Source: an uncultured Acidimicrobiaceae bacterium (GTDB taxonomy: Bacteria; Actinomycetota; Acidimicrobiia; Acidimicrobiales; RAAP-2). Taken from it: DNA of 64,000 nucleotides. The stretch's first letter is position 1. Every line of letters starts with the position of its first letter. The stretch spans positions 1-64,000 of the forward strand of contig CAIQOJ010000003.1 in NCBI GenBank assembly GCA_903873395.1. The letters run 5' to 3'. The position numbers and the translations under genes were made by a program. Shown here piece after piece: positions 34,268 to 34,350 of the stretch. The notes below the pieces were generated by a model. It saw nothing but the letters and a program-made list of their open reading frames with translations. It had not been told where the DNA came from and searched no databases.

Positions 34268-34350
34268 GGAATGCACTTCGGCGACCCGGCTGACTCAGGG
34301 AGTCCCGTGGTTTTGCGTCCCCCCCTCGCGGAGGGTTTGCCTTTTCGTCT
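34268..34350 (-). ncRNA. Probable cyclic-di-GMP-I (GEMM-I) riboswitch
   Basis: Reverse complement AAAGGCAAACCCTCCGCGAGGGGGGGACGCAAAACCACGGGACTCCCTGAGTCAGCCGGGTCGCCGAAGTGC matches GEMM-I conserved blocks; ~50 nt upstream of the beta-helix gene start. Confidence 0.85.

What the first reader, a model, noticed from the sequence alone, without database searches (positions are those of the whole stretch)
34268..34350. c-di-GMP-I (GEMM-I) riboswitch controlling a Thr-stalked beta-helix surface protein
On the minus strand the leader reads AAAGGCAAACC-CTCCGCGAGGGG-GGGACGCAAAACCACGGGACTCCCTGAGTCAGCCGGGTCGCCGAAGTGC. This carries the GEMM-I signature blocks (GCAAACC, GGACGCAAA.CC.CGGG, CAGCCGGGUNGCCGA) in the right order. 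It ends ~50 nt before the ATG (with GGAGGAG RBS) of the secreted beta-helix/Thr-rich protein. This implies second-messenger control of a probable adhesin or surface enzyme, next to a surface-glycan region.
Basis: partly seen in the sequence, partly recalled or inferred. Interest (0 to 1): 0.85.

Follow-up and report, generated by a model that had tools for sequence, protein, structure and literature searches.

The report
c-di-GMP riboswitch before beta-helix gene
An uncultured soil/freshwater actinobacterium (Acidimicrobiaceae) carries an ordinary, well-conserved RNA sensor for the second messenger c-di-GMP in the leader of a gene for a secreted beta-helix protein, probably sugar-binding or sugar-cutting, and in its genus the sensor and the gene always occur together.

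Summary
Window 34350-34276 (minus) matches Rfam RF03167 c-di-GMP-I-GGC (64.2 bits, cut-off 59, E 7.5e-13) and almost equally RF01051 c-di-GMP-I (63.5 bits, cut-off 35). The pocket bases are canonical (G20, A47, C92), so the 'GGC' label is not evidence of a changed ligand. P2/P3 covary across 19 distinct relatives, with 0/500 shuffles reaching the observed values. It is the only copy in the genome, which also encodes 10 GGDEF and 8 EAL domains.

New evidence: of 14 genomes in the genus, 9 have the riboswitch, the same 9 have the beta-helix gene, and the switch lies directly upstream in each. Across Acidimicrobiia, 34 of 396 genomes carry it; targets are mostly pilins and other secreted proteins, including glycosidases and CAP proteins.

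The protein is a signal peptide, a ~117-residue linker (48% Thr) and a confident right-handed beta-helix resembling polysaccharide lyases, hydrolases, tailspikes and adhesins. Translation-level control is likely, since no minus-strand terminator was found. The sign (on/off) is not resolved by folding. New member of a known kind.

The parts
34276..34350 (-). c-di-GMP-I riboswitch aptamer (P1-P2-P3); best Rfam label RF03167 (c-di-GMP-I-GGC), also RF01051
   Evidence: cmscan 64.2 bits, E 7.5e-13; RF01051 63.5 bits; covariation
34341..34341 (-). G equivalent to Vc2 G20 (ligand contact)
   Evidence: alignment to the Rfam models; invariant in 20 aptamers of the class; contact role from PMC4744006
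34314..34314 (-). A equivalent to Vc2 A47 (stacks between the two ligand guanines); the RF03167 consensus has G here
   Evidence: role from PMC4744006 and PMC9049102
34281..34281 (-). C equivalent to Vc2 C92 (ligand contact)
   Evidence: alignment; C in 19 of 20 aptamers; role from PMC4744006
34326..34329 (-). P2 GNRA tetraloop GCGA
   Evidence: sequence; GNRA in all 20 equal-length aptamers
34388..34416 (-). Putative promoter: TTGCGG (34416-34411), 17 nt, TACCTT (34393-34388); block conserved in several genus members
   Evidence: alignment of upstream regions; not found by the strict sigma-70 scan, so tentative
34243..34251 (-). GCGACCCGG, perfect 9-nt complement of aptamer 3' strand CCGGGTCGC (34289-34281); candidate anti-aptamer strand
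   Evidence: 0 of 300 shuffles gave a 9-nt match; not conserved in other genus members, so tentative
34222..34228 (-). Shine-Dalgarno GGAGGAG
   Evidence: sequence; similar site in most genus members
32732..34219 (-). Target gene: 495-aa secreted protein: signal peptide, Thr-rich linker (about residues 56-172, 48% Thr), right-handed parallel beta-helix (about 173-495)
   Evidence: Pfam PF13229 just below cut-off, 24.9 vs 25.9 bits; AlphaFold2 model with pLDDT mostly above 90 over the beta-helix; composition; family alignment

Best explanation
A canonical class I c-di-GMP riboswitch at the start of the leader of a secreted beta-helix protein gene. c-di-GMP made by the cell's GGDEF proteins binds the three-way junction (G20/A47/C92), stabilises P1-P3, and changes access of ribosomes to the GGAGGAG/ATG 57 nt downstream, so that production of a cell-surface or matrix glycan-binding or glycan-cleaving protein follows the sessile/motile state. 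Shown here: class, pocket bases, covarying structure, conserved pairing with this gene, presence of c-di-GMP enzymes. Inferred: that it binds c-di-GMP, that control is at translation (about 0.65), that c-di-GMP turns the gene on (about 0.6, from precedent only), and the glycan function of the protein (about 0.65).
For: Rfam matches above both cut-offs. Canonical pocket, A47 in every one of the class-wide aptamers read. Covariation: 96.8% of cells paired, 8 pairs with changes on both sides, 0/500 shuffles as good, all slid controls much worse. Perfect co-occurrence, 9 with both and 5 with neither among 14 genus genomes, always directly upstream, ATG 58-68 nt past the aptamer where an ATG start was found (G398 may start at TTG). 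The pairing persists where the divergent LPG-synthase-like neighbour is not found next to it: that neighbour was found in 5 of the 9 genomes. A beta-helix gene in another family of the order also follows such a switch (L075). 10 GGDEF and 8 EAL domains in the genome. No terminator on the minus strand; Shine-Dalgarno regions of the ten genus leaders somewhat more paired than in shuffles, combined z about -2. Fold neighbours are polysaccharide lyases and hydrolases, tailspikes and one adhesin. In a relative the second switch precedes a GH26 glycosidase. Precedents: Vc1 upstream of the secreted adhesin gbpA and Bc2 upstream of the collagen adhesin cap, both on-switches (PMC4744006, PMC4933901).
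Against: No binding or expression data. Free versus aptamer-forced folding did not give one consistent change in Shine-Dalgarno access; in the window the AUG is, if anything, less open with the aptamer formed, which would mean an off-switch. The idea that P1 itself covers the Shine-Dalgarno is not supported class-wide. The 9-nt anti-aptamer strand is not conserved. Whole-model TM-scores of the fold matches are low (0.2-0.6), so no specific enzyme family can be named.
Confidence: 0.88

Rival explanations
1. It is a c-di-GMP-I-GGC variant riboswitch with altered ligand specificity.
For: RF03167 is the best-scoring Rfam family by 0.7 bit, and most genus members also score best there.
Against: The RF03167 consensus has G at the A47 position (CGCGAA) whereas this RNA has A, as do all the other Acidimicrobiia aptamers read. 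The name's reference to the three pocket bases is from memory. The high RF03167 score most likely reflects G+C-rich helices.
Confidence: 0.05
2. The riboswitch is an off-switch: c-di-GMP binding disrupts the anti-aptamer hairpin (34289-34281 with 34251-34243) and lets the leader fold over the start codon, so the protein is made when c-di-GMP falls, for example a matrix lyase for dispersal, as RbmB acts in Vibrio cholerae.
For: A 9-nt perfect complement competing with the P3/P1 3' strand, 0/300 shuffles; AUG openness falls from 0.27 to 0.06 when the aptamer is forced. Among the best PDB fold matches is RbmB, a lyase needed for biofilm dispersal (PMC7768729).
Against: The competing strand is not conserved in the other nine genus leaders; Shine-Dalgarno access itself hardly changes (0.46 vs 0.45); secondary-structure energies ignore ligand and tertiary contacts.
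Confidence: 0.35
3. A degenerate relic or chance match with no regulatory role.
For: P1 is short and interrupted; the window leader has an A-C at the base of P3.
Against: E 7.5e-13; pocket bases intact; covariation; co-occurrence with the gene in 9 of 14 genomes and absence of both in 5.
Confidence: 0.02

Closest known systems
c-di-GMP-I (GEMM-I) riboswitch, Rfam RF01051
   Same: Three-helix aptamer, GNRA loop in P2, G20/A47/C92 pocket, C-G inter-helix pair, located in the leader of a surface-protein gene
   Different: G+C-rich helices, short P3 loop, no recognisable terminator; host is an uncultured Acidimicrobiaceae
c-di-GMP-I-GGC, Rfam RF03167
   Same: Best overall covariance-model score (64.2 bits, above the cut-off)
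   Different: Has A, not the model's G, at the A47 position
Vc1 riboswitch upstream of gbpA, Vibrio cholerae (PMC4744006)
   Same: c-di-GMP-I aptamer before a secreted glycan-binding protein; the paper reports no apparent Rho-independent terminator or anti-Shine-Dalgarno between Vc1 and the gene
   Different: Target protein not homologous; Vc1 is an experimentally shown on-switch, the sign is unknown here
Bc2 riboswitch upstream of cap, Bacillus thuringiensis (PMC4933901)
   Same: c-di-GMP-I riboswitch before a surface adhesin
   Different: Bc2 works by terminator/anti-terminator; no terminator was found here
RbmB-type beta-helix polysaccharide lyase (PDB 9ozd, 9ozl)
   Same: Right-handed beta-helix fold, about 11% identity in the fold alignment; extracellular matrix context
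   Different: No sequence homology detected; active site not mapped; TM-scores only 0.3-0.48

Membership tests
c-di-GMP-I riboswitch (RF01051) | Covariance-model score above the gathering threshold | tested here: met
   63.5 bits vs 35
c-di-GMP-I riboswitch (RF01051) | Ligand-contact bases G20, A47, C92 | tested here: met
   34341 G, 34314 A, 34281 C
c-di-GMP-I riboswitch (RF01051) | GNRA tetraloop in P2 and inter-helix C-G pair | tested here: met
   GCGA loop; C 34317 and G 34290 present; the tertiary contact itself is not testable here
c-di-GMP-I riboswitch (RF01051) | Helices P2 and P3 supported by compensatory changes | tested here: met
   8 of 18 pairs with changes on both sides, 0/500 shuffles
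c-di-GMP-I riboswitch (RF01051) | Binds c-di-GMP and controls the downstream gene | not testable with these tools
   needs binding and reporter assays
c-di-GMP-I-GGC (RF03167) | Covariance-model score above the gathering threshold | tested here: met
   64.2 bits vs 59
c-di-GMP-I-GGC (RF03167) | G at the A47-equivalent position, as in the model consensus | tested here: not met
   A at 34314; the model consensus has CGCGAA
Pfam Beta_helix PF13229 / pectate-lyase-like superfamily | Profile score above cut-off | tested here: inconclusive
   24.9 vs 25.9 bits; many homologs do carry PF13229
Pfam Beta_helix PF13229 / pectate-lyase-like superfamily | Right-handed parallel beta-helix fold | tested here: met
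   AlphaFold2 model, Foldseek matches

The most novel reading that the evidence does not exclude
In Acidimicrobiia, class I c-di-GMP riboswitches form a lineage-specific regulon for secreted surface proteins (pilins, CAP proteins, glycosidases, beta-helix proteins), and the beta-helix family here is a previously undescribed, riboswitch-controlled glycan-active or adhesive matrix protein family whose gene is retained only together with its switch.
Probability: 0.45. Interest if true: 0.45.

Novelty: new member of a known kind. Interest (0 to 1): 0.35.

Why it matters
It ties c-di-GMP signalling in a poorly studied, uncultured actinobacterial lineage to a specific secreted protein family and gives that unknown family its first functional context. 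It also cautions that an RF03167 'GGC' label does not by itself show a changed ligand pocket.

Tried and rejected
Altered-ligand (GGC) reading: rejected because A47 is canonical. Transcription terminator: three terminator-like sites, all on the plus strand, none on the coding strand. P1 directly covering the Shine-Dalgarno class-wide: no excess over shuffled 5' flanks (mean rank about 0.5). A conserved anti-aptamer strand: only in the window. Forced-aptamer folding of ten leaders: no consistent change in access to the start site. An idea that the conserved MxQGQ start codons pair with the upstream CCUGC strand was considered; it is confounded by relatedness and was not pursued. Extended outer P1: strong in G399 (L107) and G131 (L070), weak in the window. 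Literature: none of the searches returned a paper on c-di-GMP riboswitches in Acidimicrobiia (open-access library only).

Full report
Observation. The parent family RF01051 c-di-GMP-I scores 63.5 bits against 35 at the same place, and both searches find no second copy in the 2.82-Mb assembly.

Which class. The RF03167 consensus has CGCGAA after P2, that is, a G at the position of Vc2 A47; the window has CGCAAA. In all the Acidimicrobiia aptamers read here this base is A; apparent exceptions to an automatic pattern were shifts of register or other bases before the CGCAA block. G20, A47 and C92, named as the ligand contacts of Vc2 in PMC4744006, are present at 34341, 34314 and 34281. The RNA is therefore best called a canonical c-di-GMP-I riboswitch; the near-tie with RF03167 probably reflects its G+C-rich helices (inference).

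Structure. In 19 distinct equal-length aptamers from the class, 96.8% of cells at the 18 pairs of P2 and P3 are standard pairs, 8 pairs change on both sides, and no shuffle of 500 reaches any of the five measures; sliding the partners by 1-3 columns drops pairing to 26-50%. The P2 loop is a GNRA loop in every aptamer counted.

Conserved target. A genus-wide search (14 genomes) finds the riboswitch in 9 and the beta-helix protein family in exactly the same 9. In each, the switch is directly upstream and the start codon lies 58-68 nt after the aptamer; in G398 the start is probably TTG and less certain. A random overlap of 9 with 9 among 14 has probability 1/2002, ignoring relatedness and incomplete assemblies. 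The divergent LPG-synthase-like neighbour seen in the window was found in 5 of the 9 (in the others the fetched stretch does not show it), so the switch-gene pair seems to be the stable unit. Two paralogs in the window's genome are elsewhere and their fetched loci show no riboswitch match (L099, L102). In another family of the order a different beta-helix protein also follows a c-di-GMP-I switch (L075/L087).

Wider regulon. In 396 genomes of the class, 34 carry RF01051. Of 69 switches read, the next gene is a type IV prepilin-like protein in 22, a beta-helix protein in 10 and a CAP-domain protein in at least 9 by a strict motif, with several more among the 'other' group. Others include GH26 and GH5-type glycosidases and 'GGVFSFGDA'-repeat proteins. 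This matches the usual c-di-GMP theme of surface attachment and matrix (established knowledge). The host genome has 10 GGDEF and 8 EAL domains.

Protein. The product has an N-terminal signal-like segment, a 117-residue stretch that is 48% Thr and 76% Thr/Ser/Pro, and a beta-helix modelled with pLDDT mostly above 90. Its homologs, 70 in the search, are mostly metagenomic; the one source name that gives an organism says Acidimicrobiales, and named records of relatives are Acidimicrobiaceae or Acidimicrobiales MAGs, isolate names including bog and palsa. Fold matches are Sf6 tailspike, RbmB polysaccharide lyase, rhamnogalacturonase/polygalacturonases, phage depolymerases and the pneumococcal adhesin PfbA. 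Invariant or nearly invariant D302, R334, D361, E363 and D365 suggest a carbohydrate active or binding site (inference). No catalytic assignment is made.

Mechanism. The minus strand has no terminator-like site in the leader, so control of translation start is favoured. The Shine-Dalgarno regions are slightly more paired than in shuffled leaders (combined z about -2). Folding with and without the aptamer does not give a consistent direction, the P1-covers-SD idea fails class-wide, and a striking 9-nt anti-aptamer complement in the window (0/300 shuffles) is not shared by relatives. Direction is thus left at about 0.6 for on, from the on-switches Vc1/gbpA (PMC4744006) and Bc2/cap (PMC4933901).

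Context. Glycosyltransferases at 15.9-25.8 kb and an ABC-2 exporter at 20.8-22.0 kb confirm a surface-glycan region nearby; a functional link to the beta-helix protein is inference.

Verdict. What is added is the tight genus-wide coupling to one secreted beta-helix family, the class-wide list of targets, and the correction about the GGC label.

Noticed in passing
window 28138-32624 (+): Two secreted proteins with 'GYWxVASDGGVFxFGDAxFxGS' repeats, one with a SpoIID/LytB domain, next to the riboswitch gene; in G131 (L070) a protein with the same repeats itself follows a c-di-GMP-I riboswitch.
   Followed up: partly
window 15905-25788 (+): Several GT4-type glycosyltransferases and an ABC-2 membrane protein: a surface-polysaccharide cluster.
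   Followed up: partly
L110 (G399), aptamer 1501-1575: A second c-di-GMP-I riboswitch in the genus, in front of a secreted GH26 glycosidase.
   Followed up: partly
L050, L051, L066: c-di-GMP-I riboswitches in front of membrane sensor-like proteins, possibly feedback on signalling genes.
   Followed up: no
genus loci L002, L024, L106, L107, L108: Conserved upstream block TCAC(T/C)(C/T)ATTGCG followed by TAC-A/C-AT-like hexamer, probably the promoter; and an unusually conserved N-terminus MxQGQ ahead of the signal peptide, which might reflect an RNA constraint at the start of translation.
   Followed up: partly
window 39361-41553 (+): Large protein with RCC1 repeats.
   Followed up: no
L123 / L011 (G231): The ortholog in G231 has two tandem beta-helix domains and no Thr-rich linker.
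   Followed up: partly
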